A stretch of DNA of 10,340 nucleotides from the NCBI GenBank assembly GCA_017421885.1, contig JAFOHJ010000034.1, forward strand, positions 1 to 10,340, written 5' to 3'. The notes beneath the pieces were generated by a model. It saw only the letters and a program-made list of their open reading frames with translations. It did not search any database and was not told the DNA's origin. Source of the DNA: Clostridia bacterium (GTDB taxonomy: Bacteria; Bacillota_A; Clostridia; Oscillospirales; Butyricicoccaceae). Position numbers and translations under genes: made by a program. Below, piece by piece: positions 261 through 10,340 of the stretch. How positions within the stretch are numbered: position 1 is the stretch's first letter; every line of letters begins with the position of its first letter.

Positions 261-1577
261 ATGGCAAAGCCATACACCGGAGTAAGTATAGAAACACGCG
301 ATTTCAGAAAAGCCAGGATCATCAAAGAGCTGGGTTCGGGCGGACAGGGCACCGTCTATCTTGTCGATTACGACGGACAAAAGATGGCACTTAAGTGGTA
401 TCACGAAAGTACATTTAAATCTATCGAGCAGCGCCGGCAGTTTTATGACAACCTGTGCAAAAATATAGATAACGGTCCTCCTTCAGACGATTTCCTCTGG
501 CCCAGGGATATAACCCATATCACTCACGGCAGCTTTGGATACATCATGGATCTGAGACCCGACCGCTTCAAGGAGCTTTCGGTGCTGCTGGTGGGACGCA
601 AGGCAAGATTTAAGAGCTTCAGAGTGACGGTGGATGCCATGCTCAATCTTGTCAATGCCTTCAGGATACTTCATAACAGCGGCTACAGTTATCAGGACCT
701 GAACGACGGCAACTTCTTCTTTGATCCCGACACGGGCGAGTGCCTTATCTGCGACAACGACAACGCAGCTTATGAGGGCAACGTCACCGGAATCCTCGGC
801 AAGCAGAGATATATGGCGCCCGAGGTGGTGCTGGGGCAGAAGATGCCCGATAAGTATACCGACCGTTTTTCTATGTCGGTCATACTGTTCATGATGCTTA
901 TGTATCTTCATCCCCTCGAGGGTGAATATTCGACTCCGGCCTGCATGACGGCCGAGAACGAGCGCGAGTTTTATGGCAGGTCGCCGATCTTTGTGTTCGA
1001 CCCCGAGGATGGCTCTAACCCTCCCGTTAAGGGGGTGGGCGACCATGCTGTGGCAATATGGAGCGAGCTGCCCGAATATCTCAGAAAGGCATACATACGC
1101 AGCTTTACAAAGGGGTCGATGACCTTTGAAAACGGCGGATATAAGGGGGCTCGCCTTGTGGAGCGAGAATGGCTCGATGTTCTGCTCAGGTTCAGAAACA
1201 CCATCTGCCGCTGCCCCTCCTGCGGCAACGAAGAGTTTGTGAGCTCGACCGACGCCGTCTGCGCCGCCTGCGGAGACGAGCTGCCCCTTTTCAGAGAAAT
1301 AAAGCTTAAGAAGTATTCGATGCCGGTGTATCCCGGAATGCTGGTGCGCAAGGCGCAGCTTTATGAATGCCCCGAGCGCGAGGCGCTGGACCCCGTGTTT
1401 GAGGTGGTGGGAACCGAGGGCTTCCCCGGCAGGGATTATATCGTTAATGTGAGCGGCGAAACATGGCGCTGCATCACATCCTCGGGAGCCGAGAGGCCTC
1501 TTGCCCCGGGCGAGAGGATGCCGGCAAAGGCCGGGATAAAGGCAAGTGTTTTTGGCGCAGAGTTTGAGATAATTTAA
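261..1577 (+). CDS. Ser/Thr protein kinase with C-terminal zinc ribbon (TerY-P type)
   Basis: A 438-residue eukaryotic-type protein kinase that should phosphorylate proteins on Ser/Thr, probably other members of this operon. Seen in the sequence: glycine loop GSGGQGTV (25-32), lysine K45 in MALKWY, catalytic loop YQDLNDGN (D146, N151; the usual H-R-D is Y-Q-D), metal-binding D165 in DND instead of DFG, and MAPE (185-188) at the end of the activation segment. A four-cysteine zinc ribbon follows (C318, C321, C334, C337), then a beta-rich tail (about 370-438) with the N-x-S-G-x-x-W pattern near W402. The tail may be a degenerate FHA-like fold, but I am unsure. No transmembrane segment is visible, unlike PknB-type receptor kinases, so it should be cytosolic. 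All key catalytic residues are present. It is the first gene of the operon. The pairing with vWA and PP2C genes is the known TerY-P triad. Confidence 0.9.
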   Translation: MAKPYTGVSIETRDFRKARIIKELGSGGQGTVYLVDYDGQKMALKWYHESTFKSIEQRRQFYDNLCKNIDNGPPSDDFLWPRDITHITHGSFGYIMDLRPDRFKELSVLLVGRKARFKSFRVTVDAMLNLVNAFRILHNSGYSYQDLNDGNFFFDPDTGECLICDNDNAAYEGNVTGILGKQRYMAPEVVLGQKMPDKYTDRFSMSVILFMMLMYLHPLEGEYSTPACMTAENEREFYGRSPIFVFDPEDGSNPPVKGVGDHAVAIWSELPEYLRKAYIRSFTKGSMTFENGGYKGARLVEREWLDVLLRFRNTICRCPSCGNEEFVSSTDAVCAACGDELPLFREIKLKKYSMPVYPGMLVRKAQLYECPEREALDPVFEVVGTEGFPGRDYIVNVSGETWRCITSSGAERPLAPGERMPAKAGIKASVFGAEFEII

Positions 1578-1602
1578 AAGACGGATAAAAAGGAGAATAA
1601 AT

Positions 1603-2565
1603 ATGCCCGCATTCGGAACAAGCATACCCAGAAAAGTTATGACCCTCTTCCTTCTTGTCGACTGTTCGGGTTCGATGGCAGCCAGCGGCAACATCGGCAA
1701 GGTAAACGGAGCTATCGAAGAGATGATCCCTCTTCTCAGAAATATATCGGACGAGAATGCCGATGCCGAGATACGAATTGGTGTGCTGGCCTTTTCCAGC
1801 GGCTGCAAATGGATCGGCGGCGGTGTTCAGGACCTCGACCATTTTCAGTGGACAGACATGAAAGCCTCGGGCCTCACCGACATGGGCGCGGCCTTCCGCG
1901 AACTTGAAAACAGGCTCTCGAGAACAGAGTTTATGGACGGCGCGGCCGGCAACTATGCCCCCGTCATCATCCTGCTCAGCGACGGCGAACCTACCGACGA
2001 CTATCGTTCGGGCCTTGCCGTCCTTCAGCACAACAACTGGTACAGAGAGGCGCAGAAGATCGCCATCGCCGTCGACAAGGCATCGATCCAGACTCTGTCG
2101 GAGTTTACCGGAAATATCGAGACTGTCCTCGCCTGCAACGGTCAGAAGGAGGACCTTAAGCACCTTATCGTAAATGTTGCGACAGTATCCTCCAAGATGC
2201 AGAGCCGCAGCCAGACGGCAGGAACCAAGGTGGACGAAAAGGAGATCGCCGATCAGATCAGGCGCCAGCAGGAAGATAAGAAAAAGCAGGTAATAAGCGA
2301 GCTTGCACACATGATAAAGGAGCGCGGTGAGATTACCGTGGACGGAAACACCGCAGCAGAGATCGAAAGCTATCTTGCCAAGGTCGGCGTTCCTTCGGGA
2401 AATGACCTTGAGCCTACGTATAAGGGCCTTGTCGCTCAACTCAAATCGCTGGGCGGCAGCACCAGCACACCCGCAGGCGGAGCTAACGGCACTGCCACCG
2501 CTTCGGCTTCGGGCAAGACAAAGGCAAAGGTCGTTGATCCCTTTGCCGACGACAACGATTGGTAA
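1603..2565 (+). CDS. vWA-domain protein (TerY-like) with intact MIDAS
   Basis: A 320-residue cytosolic von Willebrand factor A protein, expected to bind a divalent metal ion and partner proteins rather than act as an enzyme. The fold begins at once (LFLLVD, about 15-20). The MIDAS set is complete: D20-x-S22-x-S24, T92 in GLTDMG, and D127 in LLSDGEP. The vWA domain runs to about 195. A charged helical stretch (210-245), a small helical region (250-283), a Ser/Gly/Ala/Thr linker and a conserved-looking acidic tail (DPFADDNDW, 312-320) follow. The start has a good AAAAGGAG site 7 bases upstream. It sits between kinase and phosphatase genes as in TerY-P triads, so it is probably an adaptor or substrate of those enzymes. 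The symbol terY is withheld because no Ter genes are nearby. Confidence 0.9.
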   Translation: MPAFGTSIPRKVMTLFLLVDCSGSMAASGNIGKVNGAIEEMIPLLRNISDENADAEIRIGVLAFSSGCKWIGGGVQDLDHFQWTDMKASGLTDMGAAFRELENRLSRTEFMDGAAGNYAPVIILLSDGEPTDDYRSGLAVLQHNNWYREAQKIAIAVDKASIQTLSEFTGNIETVLACNGQKEDLKHLIVNVATVSSKMQSRSQTAGTKVDEKEIADQIRRQQEDKKKQVISELAHMIKERGEITVDGNTAAEIESYLAKVGVPSGNDLEPTYKGLVAQLKSLGGSTSTPAGGANGTATASASGKTKAKVVDPFADDNDW

Positions 2566-2571
2566 TAAGCT

Positions 2572-3807
2572 ATGGGAAAGCTGGATAAACTTAAGATCGC
2601 TCTGCTGAGCGTTGTATCAAAGCTCGGCATAGGAGCGGCAAAAAAGCCCGATGAGCATACAGAGGAAAAAGAAGCCGCTCGTGAGCCTGCCGCTGCTGAG
2701 AAGAGCATCCGCCGGCATGCTTTTGCAGTCAGCTCCATCGGACACAGCCATAAAAAAGAGGGCACCCCATGCCAGGACTGGGCCGAGACCGTGGAAGGCG
2801 AGGGCTTTTGTATCATTGCGGTGTCTGACGGCCACGGCAGCCGCAACTTCGTAAGAAGCGACCGCGGCTCGCGCTTTGCCTGCAGGGCTGCACTGGATGC
2901 AATGCACGATTTTGCCTCGGAGATCAGAGCCGAGCATATTGTCGGGGCACGCAGAGCCAACGAAGTTGTTTCGATGCTGTGCAAGAACATAATCATGCGC
3001 TGGCGCGAAGCTGTTAATGAAGACGTTAAGGCCTGCCCCTTCACCGAGGATGAAGTCAAGAATGTATCGGACAAATACCGCGAAAGCTATCTTGCCGGCG
3101 AGCAGGCCGAGCATGCCTACGGCGCGACTCTGATAGCCTTGCTGATCACAGACGAATATATGTTGGCCATCCGCAACGGCGACGGCGAATGTGTCACCGT
3201 CAGCCGAAAGGGACATATGGACAAGCCCATCCCCTGGAACGACAAGTGCGAGGCCAGCGTGGTGACTTCCATGTGCGACCGCAGCGCCATCGACGAGTTC
3301 AGGTTCTTTTACACCACCGACCTGCCCGCCGCGGCCTTTATCGGCACCGACGGTGTGGATAATTCCTATCCCCGAACCGAGGAGCTGTTTGAGCTTTATG
3401 CGAATATATGCACAGAGGCGGTGGATAATGGATCCGAAAATATGAAGAGTGAGCTCGAGGCCTTCCTGCCGGTGATGACCGAAAAGGGAAGCGGAGACGA
3501 TGTTTCGATCGCCGCAATCCTCGACAGCGAGCTGCTGCCTGGGGTCAGAGATGAGCTTATGGAGCAGAGGATGAGGGTAGAGCGCACCCATGAGCTGCGC
3601 AGACTCAACCGCAGGCTGGTAAGGCTTGGAGATCAGGAGTCGGACGAGGCTTCCGCACTAAAGGACGAGATATCGCAGCTTGAAGCCGCGATCAGGGCCG
3701 ACCGCGAGAAGGCAAGAGAGCTTGCCGCAGCAGCCGAAGCGGAAAAAGCGGCAGCTGTGAAGGCCGAGTGGGACAGCGAGATCTGGGACGATGTGAAAAA
3801 AAGGTAG
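2572..3807 (+). CDS. PP2C-family protein phosphatase with coiled-coil tail
   Basis: A 411-residue metal-dependent Ser/Thr phosphatase, probably reversing the work of the kinase two genes upstream. Motifs: D69 in CQDW, D86-G-H-G89 in SDGHG, RNGDGE (201-206), the metal aspartate D260 in GTDGVDNS, and GSGDDVS (306-312). The order and spacing fit the PP2C (PPM) family. Before the domain is a short amphipathic N-terminal helix (1-22) and an acidic/Ala linker. After it, residues 325-400 form a charged, Ala-rich coiled coil ending in an acidic, Trp-containing tail (399-411). Bacterial PP2Cs are often only about 240 residues, so both ends are extra and may dock it to partners. The start lies 6 bases after the vWA stop and has no clear Shine-Dalgarno, suggesting translation by coupling. 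Confidence 0.9.
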   Translation: MGKLDKLKIALLSVVSKLGIGAAKKPDEHTEEKEAAREPAAAEKSIRRHAFAVSSIGHSHKKEGTPCQDWAETVEGEGFCIIAVSDGHGSRNFVRSDRGSRFACRAALDAMHDFASEIRAEHIVGARRANEVVSMLCKNIIMRWREAVNEDVKACPFTEDEVKNVSDKYRESYLAGEQAEHAYGATLIALLITDEYMLAIRNGDGECVTVSRKGHMDKPIPWNDKCEASVVTSMCDRSAIDEFRFFYTTDLPAAAFIGTDGVDNSYPRTEELFELYANICTEAVDNGSENMKSELEAFLPVMTEKGSGDDVSIAAILDSELLPGVRDELMEQRMRVERTHELRRLNRRLVRLGDQESDEASALKDEISQLEAAIRADREKARELAAAAEAEKAAAVKAEWDSEIWDDVKKR

Positions 3808-3816
3808 GCGCATGCA

Positions 3817-4056
3817 ATGGATAACAGCAAAAAGGCCCACATCCTTCTTGAGGAGAAGTGGGATGATATAAAGCAGAACTCGTGGAAGTGCAAGGCACAG
3901 AAGAGCTACGAGGTGCGTTATTACAACCTCATGCGTCGATATGCCGAGGATATCTATACCAATATAGACAACCTTTCGGGCGTCATGGACAGGTGCACCG
4001 ACCTTGCAGAAAGGCTGACCGGCCTGAGCTGTGACGACGGAAATGATATAAGCTGA
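3817..4056 (+). CDS. Small helical protein of unknown function
   Basis: A 79-residue, entirely helix-forming, charged protein without signal peptide or membrane segment. I do not recognise a named family. It begins 9 bases after the phosphatase stop, with a moderate AGGTAGG-like site, and ends 13 bases before the ATPase gene, so it is cotranscribed. It contains a Y-x-x-x-D (YTNID, about 47-51), which resembles the type VII export tag, but in mid-protein this could be chance. Its size and placement suggest a small partner of the ATPase or another helical-hairpin member of the locus. This is inference from context. Confidence 0.75.
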   Translation: MDNSKKAHILLEEKWDDIKQNSWKCKAQKSYEVRYYNLMRRYAEDIYTNIDNLSGVMDRCTDLAERLTGLSCDDGNDIS

Positions 4057-4069
4057 TAGGGGGAGAGAG

Positions 4070-7000
4070 ATGTCGTATAATCACTGGGAGCTGACCGATA
4101 AACTTAAAGACCTTTATTCTAAAATAGTTGTTATGAATAATGCCATAGTGCAGCTTTATGAGGTGCGTCAGGAAGAAGAGGAAAGGCAAACAGAAGCATA
4201 TAAAAAGCTCCTCTCAGATCAGGCGATGGCTTTTGATAAGAAGTACAGCGAGGCCAAGGAAAGGATATATGCTCAGGAAAGAGCATGGCTGGAACATGTC
4301 AAAGCGGTAGCCGACCTTGAAAGAATGCTGGGGCGCTATGTGCCCAGAAGCAATATCCTGTTCCCCTTTGTCAAGGATGACGGCCTGCCCTTTGACCTCA
4401 ATGAGGGATATGAGATCCTGAACAAGATCTCCTCGAAGGGCATAGGCAGCACGCTCAAAAAGCTTGCCAGAGAGGATGGCTGGAATACAAATACCCAGAT
4501 GGCAGGCCAGCTTTATCTCAAGCTGGACCGCGAGAAGAAGCGTATAGATGAGATAAACAAAGACACCGGCAGATTGCCCAGGGAGCTTGAGAAGGCCGAC
4601 AAAGCGATCGCGGCAGAGATGAGAGAGGCCCTTGAGCAGACCGAGAAAAACTTTAAAAGGCAGCTTGAGGCAGAACGTAGGGTTCTGGCCGGTCAGGTGG
4701 CGAGCGCAAATGCCTCGGCATTAAAGGGCATCCGTCAGGACGAATATGACGATATAAACGAGTATTATGCTTCGTCGGCAGAGCTTATCGGCGACAAGGA
4801 AGGCTGGCAGCATTATACTCCTGTTGTGCCCGAGATCACTGAGGATAACGGATGCGGATTTAACAAGCAGTATCTTATAGGGCGGCACCTTGAGTATGTC
4901 GCCGATGTCGCCAATAACGATCAGCCCCTGTTTAATTGGGACAGCGCGGCAGGCAAGCATGATGCCATCGAGTTCGCAGGCGGTTTCCTGGGTAATCTTC
5001 TGTGCTTCAGAAAGAAGCCTTTTTCTTATGTTCTTCCTCTGACTCACAGCCTGTGGAGCATGGTCAAAATCTATGCCGAGTGCGAAGGGCAGACGCTGTC
5101 GACCGGCGATGTCTTCCGCGATATCGTCCTGAGGCACCTCAGATTCATGCCCAAGAACACGATCAAGGTGTATTATGCCGACCCCGTCCATCAGGGAGCG
5201 AGCCTCGGAAGCCTTATCAGACTCACAAAGGAGTCGAAAGGCTGCGGAGTTGTCGAATACCGCACCAAGACCAATGAGATAGGTGATATGATCGCCGGCA
5301 TCGCCTCTCATGTGGCCGATACGATGCATAAGCTTACCGCATCGGGCTGTGAGGATATTTATGATTACAACAAAGAGCATCAGAACGAGCAGATCAATTA
5401 TACCATGCTTGTCCTCTGCGATTTCCCCCACGGCTACACGGCGCAGATCATCCATGACCTTGAGGTTATCATACATAATTCAGACAGATGCGGCATTGGC
5501 GTGCTTATTTCGAGAAATACGGCAGATAAGCTTGAGGGATACTCCGGCGCCCTTGTAAATGATGCCATCGGCGACGGCATTGGCAGCGGCTTCAGCTTTA
5601 TGAAGAATAATGGTGATAAGCTGTCGCATTCGAATGAGCTGACATTTTCGCTGGTAAAGACCACCAGAGAGGATGGAACATATCCTCCCTTCAAGCGTAT
5701 CGAGGTCAGCCCCTCGCCTGAGTTCTTCGACGAGCTCAACAAGGCATATTCGGAGAAGGTAGCCATCGAAACGGGATATGACAAATACTATCCCGCAGGT
5801 TATCTGCCTGATATAAGAAGCGCCGTAAAGGAACTAAGATTCCCCATAATGGTGGATGAAAAGGGTGAGATCGTCGAGTTCGTGATGGATCATGACCTTA
5901 AGGGCTATGGCCTTATCACCGGTAATGTCGGTTCGGGCAAGACCAGCCTGCTCAACACCATTATTATGGGCGGTGCCATGCACTATCATCCCGACGAGCT
6001 TGAAATGTGGTTGGTGGACTATAAGACCAACCAATTCGACGCGTACGAGATAAACAGGCTGCCCCATGTCCGCCACATTGTTGCTGACCCCAGTGAAACT
6101 ATATCCTACAGCATTATCGACACCATCCTGCAGGAGAAGGAGCGCAGGGCAAGGCTCTTTACAAAGGCAAAAAACGAAACCGGAAAGCCGATCAATGACT
6201 ATGGCAACTACCGCAAGGCGGGATATATGCTGCCGAGGCTTCTGGTCATTGTCGATGAGTTCCACAATATGTCTCGTGCGGCTGCGGCCGAGAGCGAATA
6301 CAGGCAGAAGCTTGAAAAGATACTTTATGAGGCACGAAGTCATGGCATAAACATCCTCTTCTGCACCCAGCTTGCCTCCAACCTCAAAGGCCTCAGCGAT
6401 GATATGATGGGCCTTATCCCCATAAGGATCGCCATGAGAAATGCGGCCTCGGAGGTAAAGACAAACCTCAGCATGCCCACATCTCCTGACGAGAAGCTGT
6501 CCGGGAATATCATAAAGCTTTCGTCGGCCCTTCAGGGAACCCTGATCTATAAGCACGAGGAGGGCAGCGCTGACGACGAGTTTGCACGCAAAATATATTA
6601 TGAATACGGAAGATCGCTGTTTGCAACAAACGAACAGGTGGCCGCAAAGCTTGTAGAGATAAGAGAGCGCATCGGCGACTACGACCGCCCCCTCGAGGTA
6701 TACTCGGGACAGAAGCGCCATAAATACAGCCCGGAGGATATCGCTGATTATGAAGACCGCGTTCCCATCATCCCTGATGAGGGCGAGCGAGTCTACATCG
6801 GGTCGAATCAGGGCCTCGGCAGATGCTTCCACATGAACATCATGAGGCCCAAAAACGGCGAAAACATCCTTATGGTCGGCGACAACGGCGAGATGCGCCG
6901 CTCGATGATGAGTTGCATCATCAGAAATGCGCGCAGCAGAGGCCGCGAGGTGGTCATCCTCGTCGGAAAGGGAAGTCTGTTCTATGCCAACAACAAGAGC

Positions 7001-7849
7001 TTCCTTAACGACTGCCGCAGGCAGGGCTGTAAGATCTATTCAACCGCAGCCGAGGTCTGCCGTTATATCGGCCTTAAGGCAGAGAAGCTCGAGGCCATGG
7101 CAAGCGGCTTTGATTCCGAGACTTCTGTGGCGCACGAATGGAACACTCTTGTCATCATGCCCGATGCCGACAGCACCTATAAGTATCTTAACTCGCTGAG
7201 CCTGAATCGAAAGCAGGCATGGGATACCATGATAAGTGAGCCTGCGCCGACTTCGGAGCCTGCTTCTGTGCCCAAGAGCGGCGGCGCTCATGTGGCTGAT
7301 GATGAAATAGCCCGCAGGGAAAAGGAGATCAAAGAGGCAGAGGAAGAGTATATGAGGCTCATGGCCATAATCAGCGGCGGAGCTGCGGCTCCTGCTGCCG
7401 AGCCCAAGCCTGAACCCAAACCCGGCAGATTCGATAAGGATCTCGAGTGGCTCAACAAGCTTCTCGGCGAAGAAAGCGAAGGCGGCGAGGGCGATTCCTT
7501 TGACGGAAACCTTGTCTGCGATTCGATGGGGCTGCCCGAGGGCGCACAGGCCTACAACGCCTGCGCAGATATGCTGACGATGATCAACGAAGGCTTTAAG
7601 CTCGGCATTATGACGTTCATCACCGCCGACACATCAAGCGGCTTCTATACCGACATGAGAGCCATCAGAGATAAGGGAAGCTTCAACCACCGCATCGTTA
7701 TGAGAATGAGCGGCGAGAATGCAGGCGATATCCTTGCCAAGGCACAGGCAATGAACATCATCAATGCTCAGAACAACAACATAAGCGCCGTTTATGAATA
7801 TATGAAAGGCACGGCAAGGACCTTTAACCCCTACCTTGACGGCGAATAA
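4070..7849 (+). CDS. FtsK/SpoIIIE/EssC-like ATPase, cytosolic variant
   Basis: A 1259-residue P-loop motor of the FtsK/HerA superfamily and the largest protein of the locus. Residues 1-230 are mainly coiled coil. Residues about 290-540 look like an ATPase fold without a Walker A, keeping a Walker-B-like MLVLCDF (446-452) and a sensor-like strand (473-483). The active domain is about 600-830: Walker A GNVGSGKT (618-625, K624), Walker B LLVIVDE (D729, E730) and sensor FCTQ (764-767). A third, degenerate domain (about 910-1259) has GDNGEMRRS (937-945) where Walker A should be, with R943 replacing lysine. It is interrupted by a Pro/Glu/Lys-rich insert (about 1055-1150). Three ATPase-like units recall EssC/EccC of type VII secretion, but no transmembrane helices or FHA domains are visible. 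A strong AGGGGGAGAG site precedes ATG 4070. Alternative roles are DNA translocation or another assembly motor. Confidence 0.88.
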   Translation: MSYNHWELTDKLKDLYSKIVVMNNAIVQLYEVRQEEEERQTEAYKKLLSDQAMAFDKKYSEAKERIYAQERAWLEHVKAVADLERMLGRYVPRSNILFPFVKDDGLPFDLNEGYEILNKISSKGIGSTLKKLAREDGWNTNTQMAGQLYLKLDREKKRIDEINKDTGRLPRELEKADKAIAAEMREALEQTEKNFKRQLEAERRVLAGQVASANASALKGIRQDEYDDINEYYASSAELIGDKEGWQHYTPVVPEITEDNGCGFNKQYLIGRHLEYVADVANNDQPLFNWDSAAGKHDAIEFAGGFLGNLLCFRKKPFSYVLPLTHSLWSMVKIYAECEGQTLSTGDVFRDIVLRHLRFMPKNTIKVYYADPVHQGASLGSLIRLTKESKGCGVVEYRTKTNEIGDMIAGIASHVADTMHKLTASGCEDIYDYNKEHQNEQINYTMLVLCDFPHGYTAQIIHDLEVIIHNSDRCGIGVLISRNTADKLEGYSGALVNDAIGDGIGSGFSFMKNNGDKLSHSNELTFSLVKTTREDGTYPPFKRIEVSPSPEFFDELNKAYSEKVAIETGYDKYYPAGYLPDIRSAVKELRFPIMVDEKGEIVEFVMDHDLKGYGLITGNVGSGKTSLLNTIIMGGAMHYHPDELEMWLVDYKTNQFDAYEINRLPHVRHIVADPSETISYSIIDTILQEKERRARLFTKAKNETGKPINDYGNYRKAGYMLPRLLVIVDEFHNMSRAAAAESEYRQKLEKILYEARSHGINILFCTQLASNLKGLSDDMMGLIPIRIAMRNAASEVKTNLSMPTSPDEKLSGNIIKLSSALQGTLIYKHEEGSADDEFARKIYYEYGRSLFATNEQVAAKLVEIRERIGDYDRPLEVYSGQKRHKYSPEDIADYEDRVPIIPDEGERVYIGSNQGLGRCFHMNIMRPKNGENILMVGDNGEMRRSMMSCIIRNARSRGREVVILVGKGSLFYANNKSFLNDCRRQGCKIYSTAAEVCRYIGLKAEKLEAMASGFDSETSVAHEWNTLVIMPDADSTYKYLNSLSLNRKQAWDTMISEPAPTSEPASVPKSGGAHVADDEIARREKEIKEAEEEYMRLMAIISGGAAAPAAEPKPEPKPGRFDKDLEWLNKLLGEESEGGEGDSFDGNLVCDSMGLPEGAQAYNACADMLTMINEGFKLGIMTFITADTSSGFYTDMRAIRDKGSFNHRIVMRMSGENAGDILAKAQAMNIINAQNNNISAVYEYMKGTARTFNPYLDGE

Positions 7850-7850
7850 C

Positions 7851-7858
7851 AGAAGGTG
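7851..7858 (+). promoter_or_regulatory. Ribosome binding site fixing the start at 7865
   Basis: AGAAGGTG at 7851-7858 lies 6 bases before ATG 7865. The upstream in-frame GTG at 7856 overlaps this site and has no room for its own, so ATG 7865 is preferred. Confidence 0.6.
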
Positions 7859-7864
7859 ACATCC

Positions 7865-8590
7865 ATGGGTGAAGAAAAAGTTAAAAAGCTGGTGCTCACA
7901 AACGGTTCGGGCGTCATAGCCGATAATTCGGGAATGCAGGATGCTCTGAGCGGCCTCGACCCGGTCATGGAATCGGCCCTTGAGGGAGTCTCGATAAACG
8001 ACCTTATGGCCGACGGCCATTACGACTATGCCATGAAGCGCATATTAAAGGAGTGCGGCGGCCATAAAAATGCCGCGGCGGCACGGTTCGAGGGCTATTA
8101 TGCGGCGGCTCAGAATGCCGGAAATGTGTCCGGCCGTCCACTCTGCGACTGGGACATTACCGCCATGCTGGAGAGGATCGACGAGAAGATCGCCGAGGTG
8201 GACAAGGCCAAACAGAGCGGCATGGGCGGCGTGACGGTGACATCGTCGAATGTCGCGGGGGTGACCCCTGCGGCAGACCATCCCGCGGCCGGCAGGGCGG
8301 GCATCGATCAGGACCCCTACGAGAGGGAAAAGTTCGCCCAGAAGCTTATCGACTATCACGGCGACCTGCTTGAGATATGCTGGAGGATGAAGGAGCATCT
8401 CAATGATGCAAAGCCCTATATGAACGGAAGCCACACCTTCCTTTCTCTTCTCGACCAGCTGGAAGCAACTGCGGCGGCCATTCAGAAGAGGGGCGATGCC
8501 ATCCTCGAGCTGGGAAACGCCGAAAAGAAGCACGCCCGATATCTTATAGAGCTTTATGAAAAGTTCGGGAAGTTCGAGGTGAAAAAGTAA
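7865..8590 (+). CDS. Two-part helical protein of unknown function
   Basis: A 241-residue protein I do not recognise. It has an N-terminal part (1-115) with several short helices, a flexible Gly/Thr/Ala/Pro linker (about 117-150), and a C-terminal helical part (about 152-240). The latter could be a hairpin whose turn is near YMNGSHTF (185-192), similar in layout to the small proteins that follow. It has no signal peptide or membrane segment. The start is set by the site at 7851-7858; a GTG at 7856 would add three residues. The stop codon overlaps the next ATG (TAATG), so the two proteins are likely made together. It directly follows the ATPase gene, which suggests an adaptor, chaperone or larger substrate-like partner (inference). 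Confidence 0.8.
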   Translation: MGEEKVKKLVLTNGSGVIADNSGMQDALSGLDPVMESALEGVSINDLMADGHYDYAMKRILKECGGHKNAAAARFEGYYAAAQNAGNVSGRPLCDWDITAMLERIDEKIAEVDKAKQSGMGGVTVTSSNVAGVTPAADHPAAGRAGIDQDPYEREKFAQKLIDYHGDLLEICWRMKEHLNDAKPYMNGSHTFLSLLDQLEATAAAIQKRGDAILELGNAEKKHARYLIELYEKFGKFEVKK

Positions 8591-8925
8591 TGCCCGAGGA
8601 AAACATTTTCAAGGTCAACCCCATCGAGATAATGAGGCTCAGCCAGTCGCTGGTCAAGGATTATATCGACCTCCGCGACAAGACAGACGAGCTGATGAAG
8701 GAATATAAAAAGCTGGGCCTGAGCTATATTGACGACGGCTACAGGCAGCTGGGCGAGGTGCTTGGGCTTATCGAAAAGGATATTTCCGAGCGAAACGGAC
8801 ACATGGGCCTTGTTGCCCATCAGCTGGATATTGCGGCTCAGCAGATAATGGAGGCCCTAAAAGCCGAAGCGGCGGCAAGGGCAGCCGTTCAGAATGTGAA
8901 CGAACAGAACAAAGGAGATGCATAA
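8590..8925 (+). CDS. WXG100-like helical-hairpin protein, DDG type (copy 1)
   Basis: A 111-residue, signal-less, two-helix protein. Helix one spans about 11-43, a turn contains YIDDGY (46-51), helix two spans about 52-100, and a polar tail follows. Length, helix-turn-helix layout and a central aromatic/Gly turn match the WXG100 (EsxA/YukE) superfamily, but the W-x-G itself is replaced by [FY]-x-D-D-G. The next gene is a clear paralogue: by hand about 35 of 84 aligned residues are identical, without gaps from the N-P-x-E motif onward. The start overlaps the previous stop and has a GAGGTG site. No C-terminal Y-x-x-x-[DE] export tag is present. It is probably a partner or substrate of the FtsK-like ATPase (inference). 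Confidence 0.82.
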   Translation: MPEENIFKVNPIEIMRLSQSLVKDYIDLRDKTDELMKEYKKLGLSYIDDGYRQLGEVLGLIEKDISERNGHMGLVAHQLDIAAQQIMEALKAEAAARAAVQNVNEQNKGDA

Positions 8926-8927
8926 GA

Positions 8928-9260
8928 ATGCCCGGATTTGGTTTGAAGGCTAACCCGGTAGAGATGAAAAAGCTCGCGCTGGGCATTATGAAAGACCTTA
9001 AAGAGTTTGAAGACAAGACGGCCTTTATGTGGAGCGAATATAAGAAGCTGGGCGAGAGCTTCCACGACGACGGATATCTCGAGATGGGCTCGTATATTCA
9101 GGATATTCAGAAGAGAATAGACGAACGAGGCGAATATATAAAGCTTGCTGCCGACACACTTGATAAGGTGGCCGACGAGATCCTGAAGGCTCTTGAGGAG
9201 CAGGCCAAGGCAATTCTTGCAGCGCAGCAGGCGGCAGGCGGACAGGGAGGTAAGCAGTAA
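8928..9260 (+). CDS. WXG100-like helical-hairpin protein, DDG type (copy 2)
   Basis: A 110-residue paralogue of the preceding protein, with the same N-P-x-E start of helix one, a shared SEYKKLG/KEYKKLG segment, and the turn motif FHDDGY at 45-50. Helix two runs to about 100 and ends in a Gly/Gln/Ala-rich tail. A tryptophan occurs at residue 35, but not in a W-x-G. A strong AAAGGAGATG site (8911-8920) precedes the start, 2 bases after the previous stop. The tandem arrangement points to gene duplication followed by divergence, perhaps giving a heterodimer as in EsxA/EsxB pairs (inference). Confidence 0.82.
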   Translation: MPGFGLKANPVEMKKLALGIMKDLKEFEDKTAFMWSEYKKLGESFHDDGYLEMGSYIQDIQKRIDERGEYIKLAADTLDKVADEILKALEEQAKAILAAQQAAGGQGGKQ

Positions 9261-9592
9261 TGGAATACAGTGTGGAACAGATGAAGAGTCTTCTTGACCG
9301 CGACCCTGCCGAACAGAAAAGATTCGGAAGGCTGCTTCAGCAGTATGAGAGCGACCTTCTTGAGGTACATGCCCGCCTTGTCAGCCGCATCGACGAGGCC
9401 GAAGCGCTCCTCGGAGAGGACATTACGACCACCGTTACCGGTGAGGTGAGGAATCTCCTGAGTGAGATAAAGAACCTCCTTAACGGCGACCTTTCAAGTT
9501 ACGGCGCGGCTCATGTCAAGAGCGCCGAGAAGCTGGAGCAGGCACAGGACATGATCCGCGAGCTGCTCAAGAAGCTCAATGTCAAGCTCTGA
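9260..9592 (+). CDS. Small helical protein, divergent member of the array
   Basis: A 110-residue, almost wholly helical protein with two long helical regions (about 4-50 and 60-108). The Thr-rich break between them (GEDITTTVTGE, about 52-62) occupies the position of the DDG turn in its neighbours. The DDG motif itself is absent, and I see no convincing alignment with the paralogues on either side. The start ATG overlaps the previous stop (TAATG) and has a GGGAGG site (9245-9250). It has no signal peptide or membrane segment. Same size and operon position suggest a structurally related partner, but homology is unproven. Confidence 0.75.
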   Translation: MEYSVEQMKSLLDRDPAEQKRFGRLLQQYESDLLEVHARLVSRIDEAEALLGEDITTTVTGEVRNLLSEIKNLLNGDLSSYGAAHVKSAEKLEQAQDMIRELLKKLNVKL

Positions 9593-9866
9593 TATGATAG
9601 AAGTCAGCTGTGAAGAGCTCAGAGCGCTGAGGATAAAGCTGCTCATGGCATATAAGGCCGTCATACTCGACTGTCAGAGGCTCGAGGCTGCCGTAGAGAA
9701 GCTGGAAGAGACCTTTGAGGACGACGGTATCGACGAGATAAAGGCTGTGTGCGAGGGCATATATAAGGAGCTGGGCGAGAACAAAGATGCCCTTCTGCTG
9801 ATATCCGAGGCCCTCGAGCAGGCCGCTGCGCTTATCGAAGAGTCAAAGGAGGTCGTGGGGCAGTGA
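9579..9866 (+). CDS. WXG100-like helical-hairpin protein, DDG type (copy 3)
   Basis: A 95-residue helical protein with FEDDGI at 46-51, the same place as the DDG turn in the two proteins upstream. Two starts are possible: ATG 9579, which overlaps the previous gene by 14 bases, and ATG 9594, just after its stop. Neither has a strong Shine-Dalgarno. The first is kept because it puts the motif at the same distance from the N-terminus as in the relatives. It aligns without gaps to the next protein (the D-D pairs coincide, and both end in an E-E-S-based tail), so these two form a second paralogous pair. It is the shortest DDG protein so far, with little tail after helix two. Confidence 0.75.
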   Translation: MSSSDMIEVSCEELRALRIKLLMAYKAVILDCQRLEAAVEKLEETFEDDGIDEIKAVCEGIYKELGENKDALLLISEALEQAAALIEESKEVVGQ

Positions 9867-10135
9867 CACTTGACATCAGACGCGACACCGACGAGATGAG
9901 AGCCTGCCGCAACAGAATATATGACTTTGCCATGGCGATCGCAAAGGATGCCGCCGACATAAAAAAGGCCTGCAGAGAGGCATCAGACTACATGAGGGAC
10001 GATGTGTGCCAGGAGGCCCTTAAGGCCATCGGCAACATGGCAGACAACATGATAAAGCAGGGCGAGGTAGCCCTAGCCCTTGCCGACAGGATAGAAAAAT
10101 CGGCAAAGATACTGGAAGAATCGGAAGAGCTTTAA
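9863..10135 (+). CDS. WXG100-like helical protein, turn motif altered
   Basis: A 90-residue helical protein starting with GTG that overlaps the previous stop (GTGA), preceded by a full AAAGGAGG site (9845-9852). It matches the preceding protein end to end without gaps. However, the turn reads MRDDVC (44-49): the two aspartates stay while the aromatic and the glycine are lost. This suggests divergence after duplication, perhaps to a dedicated dimer partner. It has no signal peptide, membrane segment or export tag. Confidence 0.75.
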   Translation: MTLDIRRDTDEMRACRNRIYDFAMAIAKDAADIKKACREASDYMRDDVCQEALKAIGNMADNMIKQGEVALALADRIEKSAKILEESEEL

Positions 10136-10149
10136 GGGAGGAAGGCATT

Positions 10150-10340
10150 ATGGCGATCATATTTGCGAAAATCGATCTGCTGCGTGAGTTTCAGGCCTTT
10201 CTTCCCGATAAGATACTCGATGCCATGGAAAAGGCTGTGCCCAGACTCGACGTGAGGATCGAAAGTACAAAAAAGTTTATGGCAGAGGCCGAGGAAAAGG
10301 CCGAGAACACCTATAAGAAGAAGGAAAAGGCCTGCGATGC
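10150..10340 (+). CDS. N-terminus of another helical, charged protein (partial)
   Basis: ATG 10150 is preceded by a strong GGGAGGAAGG site (10136-10145) and opens a frame that runs off the right edge after 63 codons. The visible part begins MAIIFAKIDLLREF. From residue 28 on it is a highly charged Lys/Glu/Ala helix, probably coiled coil, with a cysteine near the cut. It is not obviously alignable with the DDG proteins. It continues the operon with a 14-base gap. Its full length and function cannot be judged from the window. Confidence 0.7.
   Translation, partial: MAIIFAKIDLLREFQAFLPDKILDAMEKAVPRLDVRIESTKKFMAEAEEKAENTYKKKEKACD

What the first reader, a model, noticed from the sequence alone, without database searches (positions are those of the whole stretch)
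261..10340. Kinase/vWA/PP2C switch wired to a type-VII-like ATPase and a WXG100-like array
Seen: one tightly packed operon joins three signalling proteins with intact active or metal sites, an FtsK-family ATPase, and at least seven small helical proteins. Known: kinase/vWA/PP2C trios (TerY-P) occur near Ter genes, FtsK/EssC ATPases with WXG100 proteins form type VII secretion loci, and kinase/PP2C pairs switch type VI secretion on and off. Inference: this is a phosphorylation-gated, type-VII-like machine that is neither a classic Ter locus nor a standard ESX/Yuk locus.
Basis: partly seen in the sequence, partly recalled or inferred. Interest (0 to 1): 0.85.

Follow-up and report, generated by a model that had tools for sequence, protein, structure and literature searches.

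The report
Phospho-switched toxin machine with type-VII motor
A gut bacterium carries one compact operon that joins a protein-phosphorylation switch and a membrane-free relative of the type VII secretion motor to WXG100-like helper proteins and, just past the end of the window, an RNase toxin and its antidote, which suggests what this little-studied class of mobile type-VII-like machines carries.

Summary
In detail: kinase, vWA, PP2C and FtsK-like ATPase genes sit in one tight operon with small helical proteins, and catalytic or metal residues are intact. Three of the five small genes behind the 244-aa gene carry a DDG turn; a predicted model of one is a helical hairpin whose best solved matches are EsxA/EsxB and H. 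pylori HP0062. A 94.8%-identical contig (L004) shows what the window cuts off: a helical protein with a C-terminal barnase-type RNase, then barstar. Two relatives with the same trio and ATPase carry a different toxin-like and immunity-like pair there. The ATPase has three FtsK-like domains, only the middle one with intact Walker motifs. None of L004's 13 operon proteins shows a membrane segment, and its MAG no canonical EssC or EssB. The class is known in outline: 'mobile T7SS' (2012) and the TerY-P/EssC-like extension of type III-A CoCoNuTs (2024); a nuclease beside a WXG/FtsK cluster is listed for H. pylori (2016). New here are the clostridial lineage, the degenerate WXG array and an explicit toxin/immunity pair behind it. 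The trio is portable and mostly found without this ATPase. Gating by phosphorylation and the toxin's destination (neighbour or own cell) remain inference.

The parts
261..1577 (+). Ser/Thr kinase with C-terminal zinc ribbon and tail (TerY-P kinase)
   Evidence: PF00069 1.4e-15; 44% identical to the L054 kinase, catalytic Lys/Asp/Asn and four Cys kept
1603..2565 (+). TerY-like vWA protein with intact MIDAS and C-terminal acidic-Trp tail
   Evidence: PF13519 1.4e-8, PADLOC TerY 5.4e-4, alignment, tail survey
2572..3807 (+). PP2C phosphatase
   Evidence: PF13672 2.2e-31; metal Asp residues kept in 4 of 4 rows
3817..4056 (+). 79-aa helical protein just upstream of the ATPase; short proteins also lie just upstream of the ATPase in L001 and L011 and upstream of the kinase in L035 (kinship weak)
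   Evidence: WXG100 0.12, below cut-off; alignment; neighbours
4070..7849 (+). FtsK/EssC-like ATPase: charged, probably coiled-coil N-terminus (about aa 1-235), degenerate domain 1 (about aa 332-483), active domain 2 (about aa 588-831), degenerate domain 3 (about aa 906-1254); no TM segment
7856..8590 (+). 244-aa protein, no Pfam family
   Evidence: kept in L004 with dN/dS 0.17
8590..8925 (+). WXG100-like protein s1, turn motif YIDDGYRQL
   Evidence: no Pfam WXG100 hit
8928..9260 (+). WXG100-like hairpin s2, turn motif FHDDGYLEM; structure predicted
   Evidence: AF2 pLDDT 87; Foldseek and VIA top matches EsxA/EsxB/HP0062; no Pfam WXG100 hit
9260..9592 (+). small helical protein s3, no turn motif
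9579..9866 (+). WXG100-like protein s4, turn motif FEDDGIDEI
   Evidence: WXG100 0.0035, below cut-off
9863..10135 (+). small helical protein s5, related to a small protein of L035 (1.3e-5)
10150..10340 (+). start of the toxin gene (cut by the window); the complete homologue in L004 has a helical N-terminus and a C-terminal barnase domain, and barstar is the next gene there
   Evidence: L004:10971-11897 PF00545 5.7e-14; L004:11894-12184 PF01337 8.5e-14; colinearity

Best explanation
The operon encodes a toxin-deployment machine of the soluble ('mobile') type-VII-like class. WXG100-like hairpins (s1-s5) bind the helical N-terminus of a polymorphic toxin, here a barnase-type RNase, and present it to an EssC-like ATPase, presumably a hexamer with one active motor domain per subunit, which threads the toxin out of its complex towards its target. 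Barstar protects the producer. The TerY-P trio (zinc-ribbon kinase, MIDAS vWA, PP2C) is a reversible phosphorylation switch that senses a stress or invader signal and turns the motor on or off. Shown here: gene content, intact sites, predicted WXG100-like fold of s2, EssC-like motor, the toxin/immunity pair in the near-identical contig, and different toxin-like pairs at that place in relatives. Inferred: binding, hexamer, threading, gating and the direction of delivery. Delivery to other cells is slightly favoured over release inside the producer because the cargo varies together with an immunity-like partner, but no export channel is encoded.
For: Barnase and barstar directly behind the small genes in L004. 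The same position holds a papain-fold deamidase toxin + 83 aa in L035 and a C39-like protein (below cut-off) + 158 aa in L054, both with the full trio and ATPase. The more distant Helicobacter plasmid L001 has a WXG100-like protein (below cut-off), a WHH nuclease, a SUKH immunity gene and the ATPase in a row. s2 model: two-helix hairpin with FHDDGY at the turn, best matches WXG100. ATPase aligned with EssC over 928 columns and best Foldseek match EccC 4nh0. The window ATPase lies in a clade of 6 rows (window, P0002, P0003, L035, L054, L055), support 100/100. MAG G001 also has a barnase with a Sec/lipoprotein-like start (sequence reading), 57% identical over 112 residues to the operon toxin, which has the helical N-terminus instead: the N-terminus looks like an exchanged targeting domain.
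Confidence: 0.55

Rival explanations
1. Self-directed (abortive-infection or stress) system: the ATPase frees the RNase from barstar or from a WXG scaffold inside the producing cell when the TerY-P switch senses phage or stress. Nothing is secreted.
For: No membrane protein in the operon and no canonical T7SS found in the MAG. A TerY-P module is reported as anti-phage (PMC7699616 passage) and TerY-P accompanies restriction systems (PMC11090510 passages). RNase activity would halt the cell.
Against: Toxin domains vary together with immunity-like genes, which is typical of competition between cells; L055 has, behind its toxin pair, a second gene of toxin-like build (no toxin family in Pfam). The L035 kinase has a likely membrane segment and outer repeats.
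Confidence: 0.3
2. Two unrelated cassettes side by side: a TerY-P/ATPase/WXG stress module and a barnase/barstar cassette that merely follows it and works alone.
For: The same MAG has another barnase/barstar pair elsewhere with a Sec-like start. Toxin cassettes move often.
Against: Toxin start 14 bp behind s5, dN/dS 0.18 over its first 63 codons; different toxin-like pairs at the equivalent place in L035, L054 and L055; toxin N-termini of L004 and L035 weakly related (phmmer 8e-4); no hydrophobic signal on the operon toxin.
Confidence: 0.12

Closest known systems
EssC-like ATPase/WXG100 extension of type III-A CoCoNuTs with TerY-P (PMC11090510, 2024; passages read)
   Same: TerY-P trio with zinc-ribbon kinase; EssC-like ATPase without TM, three ATPase domains with only the middle one active; WXG100 proteins with and without the motif
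   Different: No CnuB/CnuC/CnuH/CnuE-like genes were recognised in the loci read (no targeted search); a single vWA in the window, not two flanking the ATPase; cargo is a barnase/barstar pair. The authors report a coiled-coil nuclease and a DNA-mimic-like protein there; in the passages I read these are not called toxin and immunity
'Mobile versions of T7SS' with solo WXG proteins and a YueA-like 3-domain ATPase (PMC3482391 table footnote, 2012; passage read)
   Same: ATPase architecture and small WXG-like proteins; distribution beyond classic T7SS hosts
   Different: Described as solo WXG; here a toxin/immunity cargo and a phospho-switch are attached, and the host is a clostridium
T7SSc of Bacillota (PMC11217815, 2024; passages read)
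   Same: vWA + kinase + PPM phosphatase beside an EssC-type ATPase and WXG100
   Different: T7SSc has a membrane-bound ATPase and a kinase with a membrane helix, and T7SS other than T7SSd carry a ubiquitin-like component; none was found in the window
H. pylori TerY-P island and WXG100/FtsK cluster (PMC4978471, 2016; passages read)
   Different: Other nuclease; trio with WXG/FtsK is reported in one strain only; no barstar-type partner named in the passages

Membership tests
TerY-P triad | Neighbouring kinase, TerY-like vWA and PP2C genes | tested here: met
TerY-P triad | Kinase fused to a C-terminal zinc ribbon | tested here: met
   C318/C321/C334/C337 kept in 3 of 3 rows; Pfam zinc-ribbon hits below cut-off
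Mobile/soluble T7SS ATPase class | Three FtsK/HerA domains, only the middle one with Walker motifs | tested here: met
   model pLDDT 65
Mobile/soluble T7SS ATPase class | No TM and no FHA at the N-terminus | tested here: met
   no FHA hit, no TM; EssC-like controls L031, L032, L034 positive in the same scan
Mobile/soluble T7SS ATPase class | N-terminal coiled coil | tested here: inconclusive
   composition fits (4 Pro, 35% charged in aa 1-235); no coiled-coil program run, region not modelled
Canonical T7SSb/ESX | Membrane-anchored EssC/EccC over the curated cut-off | tested here: not met
Canonical T7SSb/ESX | EssB/YukC present in the genome | tested here: not met
   0 of 4 relative genomes; control B. 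subtilis positive; the window's own genome is not held, MAG completeness unknown
WXG100 family | Pfam WXG100 over cut-off | tested here: not met
   best window protein 18.0 of 27.3 bits; related L002 protein passes with 30.8
WXG100 family | Two-helix hairpin of EsxA/EsxB type | tested here: met
CoCoNuT type III-A | CnuB/CnuC/CnuH/CnuE genes | tested here: inconclusive
   none recognised among the genes read in L004, L035, L054; contigs of limited length, no targeted search
Ter locus | TerD/TerC-type genes beside the trio | tested here: inconclusive
   none recognised in the window or in the L004 genes scanned; no targeted search
Polymorphic toxin system | Conserved N-terminus with exchangeable C-terminal toxins and matching immunity genes | tested here: inconclusive
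   different toxins and immunity-like genes in L004, L035, L054, but toxin N-termini only weakly related and no relative found
Phosphorylation-gated secretion | Kinase/phosphatase changes motor activity | not testable with these tools
   needs bench work

The most novel reading that the evidence does not exclude
A cytosolic 'type VII' machine: an EssC-like motor that has left the membrane and acts, under a TerY-P phospho-switch, as a cytoplasmic unfoldase that pulls an RNase toxin from its WXG scaffold or from barstar, so that a secretion engine has become a programmed-death or defence device. By the same reading, the coiled-coil nuclease and the DNA-mimic-like protein of CoCoNuT type III-A loci would be its toxin and immunity pair.
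Probability: 0.22. Interest if true: 0.88.

Novelty: new variant of a known kind. Interest (0 to 1): 0.62.

Why it matters
EssC-like ATPases of this build with solo WXG proteins have been known as 'mobile T7SS' since 2012; the passages I read name no toxin/immunity cargo for them. A clostridial operon that ends in toxin plus immunity gives that class a candidate substrate, a compact 13-gene unit to test, and a control switch with measurable phosphorylation. It makes two open questions directly testable: what a type-VII motor does without a membrane anchor, and what TerY-P signalling acts on.

Tried and rejected
Own genome of the window: none held, so host-genome tests used the MAG holding L004 (G001) and three relatives. 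Viral collection scan with the ATPase: 55 stretches, none a relative; in the phage and plasmid collections 145 and 188 records matched, none over 80% of the query. PADLOC hits of the ATPase (SspH, mad8) and of the kinase (mad6, PD-T4-6) cover only the shared motor or kinase core; rejected as membership. EssC and EccC models match far below their cut-offs; ordinary EssC rejected. CHASE3 and V-SNARE hits of s3, and TelA of s2, are below cut-off. The toxin N-terminus search found only itself. The turn motif is not general: 10 of 21 small proteins scanned match it, among the misses s3, s5, both L054 proteins and the Caballeronia protein that passes Pfam WXG100. The class search used A1, the order and phylum searches A2, with different E-value limits, so their rates are not comparable. 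The automatic gene picker dropped the kinase and vWA of L004 and the vWA of the window in favour of longer antisense ORFs; repeated on all ORFs. My first look for the ATPase near the 14 extra kinases printed only 4.5 kb either side; repeated over the whole loci. Proteins labelled EssC in the tree (L029, L032) were so called by length and likeness, not by a model. The WXG100 model finds nothing in four genomes that hold the DDG proteins, so it is blind to them. Contexts of P0002 and P0003 could not be read (metagenome collection capped at 0). Anantharaman 2012, the primary TerY-P paper, is not held; cited only through PMC11090510 and PMC4978471. The ATPase model has mean pLDDT 65, so only its domain order is used.
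Full report
What is there. The window holds eleven complete genes on the + strand plus the start of a twelfth, with junction gaps of -14 to +25 bp. Pfam places the kinase, vWA, PP2C and FtsK/SpoIIIE domains over their cut-offs. A goat-colon Clostridia MAG contig, L004, is colinear with the whole window at 94.8% nucleotide identity, and all 12 ORFs compared (the last in part) show dN/dS 0.04-0.26.

What the window cuts off. In L004 the operon continues: the gene that starts at window 10150 is a 308-aa protein whose C-terminus is a barnase-type ribonuclease (PF00545, 5.7e-14), and the next gene, overlapping it by 4 bp, is barstar (PF01337, 8.5e-14). Upstream, on the other strand, lies a protein with a zinc-ribbon-like start that shares a C-terminal stretch with the window's vWA protein (32% over 74 residues, E 3e-9). 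Behind barstar comes a gene on the other strand with no family over cut-off, then an AIM24 gene. In L004 the operon therefore runs from kinase to barstar, 13 genes, and none of the 13 products has a membrane segment by a hydropathy scan (window proteins); three EssC-like controls scored positive in that kind of scan.

Relatives. Searches with the ATPase gave 9 of 391 genomes of the class at 1e-20, 5 of 394 of the order at 1e-30, 1 of 398 of the phylum at 1e-30 (that one being L004's own genome), and 1 of 2 of G053's order at 1e-30. Four of the nine class hits are of EssC length (1531-1562 aa). A tree of the central motor domain puts the window, P0002, P0003, L035, L054 and L055 in one clade (100/100), apart from the EssC-like rows and from the plasmid ATPase of Caballeronia, which pairs with a Helicobacter plasmid (98/99) (bootstrap not fully settled, several long branches). 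L035 and L054 carry the full trio, the ATPase, small helical genes, and then a toxin-like and an immunity-like gene: a papain-fold glutamine-deamidase toxin plus 83 aa in L035 (PF15644, 3e-8, over cut-off), a C39-like protein (7e-4, below cut-off) plus 158 aa in L054. The 83-aa and 158-aa genes have no family over cut-off; 'immunity-like' rests on position. L055 has the ATPase, two small genes, the same deamidase domain (58% identical to L035's) with an 88-aa partner (39% identical to L035's 83 aa), and large membrane proteins, but no trio in 19.9 kb. L054 has a phage-type integrase gene upstream, and so has L036 at the contig side, in line with mobility.

How tight is the link? Of 24 relative loci scanned on all ORFs, 4 hold the full trio (L002, L004, L035, L054) and 13 a WXG-like protein. 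Six of those 13 supplied sequences to the profile used, L004 is a near-copy of the window, which also did, and the L041 protein lies about 11 kb from its ATPase. Contig lengths differ, so misses are possible. In reverse, the trio-kinase profile hits 15 of 394 genomes of the order (16 places); of the 14 loci other than G001 and G473, 12 have kinase, vWA and PP2C together and 2 the kinase alone. None holds a close ATPase relative within its 11-17.5 kb; one (L075) has a weak match of 2.3e-5 on the other strand at the locus edge. In the same order, the ATPase search listed only G001 and G473 among these 15 genomes. The trio is a portable switch that has been attached to this machine; the separate place of the Caballeronia ATPase in the tree suggests more than once. 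Other relatives carry JAB and ThiF genes (L036; L003 and L008 by sequence reading) or DnaK-like genes (L040, L057, by sequence reading) instead.

How it may work. WXG-like partners that escort LXG toxins to T7SSb are established (PMC9600955, passages read). By analogy s1-s5 would escort the helical N-terminus of the RNase to the motor, and the TerY-P trio would set the motor's state. A natural comparison supports the N-terminus as a targeting domain: MAG G001 carries a second barnase with a Sec/lipoprotein-like start (sequence reading), 57% identical over 112 residues, beside its own barstar; MAG binning could mislead here. Whether the toxin leaves the cell is open. Exchangeable toxin/immunity-like pairs favour competition; the absence of any membrane part favours a self-directed role. 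The L035 kinase has a likely membrane segment near residue 364 followed by repeats (a second hydrophobic stretch at 195 lies inside the kinase domain), so at least one relative seems tied to the envelope.

What is known and what is new. The union of TerY-P, an EssC-like ATPase and WXG100 is published for CoCoNuT III-A loci and for H. pylori; T7SSc has vWA, kinase and phosphatase on a membrane T7SS (PMC11217815, passages read). The H. pylori paper also lists an HNH/Endo VII nuclease with FtsK in a 'WXG100 secretion system' cluster (PMC4978471 table), so a nuclease beside this kind of motor is partly in print. In the listings and passages from eight searches of the held library I saw no report that names a toxin/immunity cargo for TerY-P-linked soluble EssC-like machines; subscription papers, including Anantharaman 2012, were not available. 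In the CoCoNuT loci the authors report a coiled-coil nuclease followed by a DNA-mimic-like protein; read beside this operon, that pair looks like toxin and immunity. That is inference and was not tested. Verdict: a new variant of a known kind, with real value because it supplies a candidate cargo.

Noticed in passing
window 1603-2565 and loci L002, L004, L054, L074-L081, L085-L087: TerY-type vWA proteins end in an often acidic stretch with a tryptophan in the last two residues: 17 of 19 rows (window and L004 are near-copies; exceptions L035 and L084 end in F); among all picked ORFs of 100 aa or more in these loci, 20 of 256, which includes the picked vWA genes. It may be a docking tail.
   Followed up: partly
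L004:1-837(-), L054:14445-14999, L074:9371-10489(-): Accessory proteins related to one with a zinc-ribbon-like start (Sel1 repeats in L054 and L074) recur beside the trio; the L004 one shares a C-terminal stretch with the window's vWA protein.
   Followed up: partly
L036 (and L003, L008): A related soluble FtsK ATPase with WXG-like, toxin-type proteins has JAB and ThiF neighbours in L036; similar genes are read by sequence in L003 and L008. Signalling partners of this ATPase class seem exchangeable.
   Followed up: no
L040, L057: Another branch of the ATPase family sits beside DnaK-like genes by sequence reading, recalling the H. pylori DnaK/WXG100 cluster in PMC4978471.
   Followed up: no
L055:1854-16132: A clade member with three large membrane proteins, a toxin pair and a second gene of toxin-like build; a candidate for what an export part looks like when it is present.
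   Followed up: no
L093:1291-2241(-): A second barnase/barstar pair in the MAG that holds L004; this barnase has a Sec/lipoprotein-like start.
   Followed up: partly
L088 (Prevotella sp. E2-28 plasmid): A trio whose vWA is 42% identical over two thirds of the window's, beside genes annotated as 3'-5' exonuclease, FtsK, formylglycine-generating enzyme family and OmpA: another partner set.
   Followed up: no
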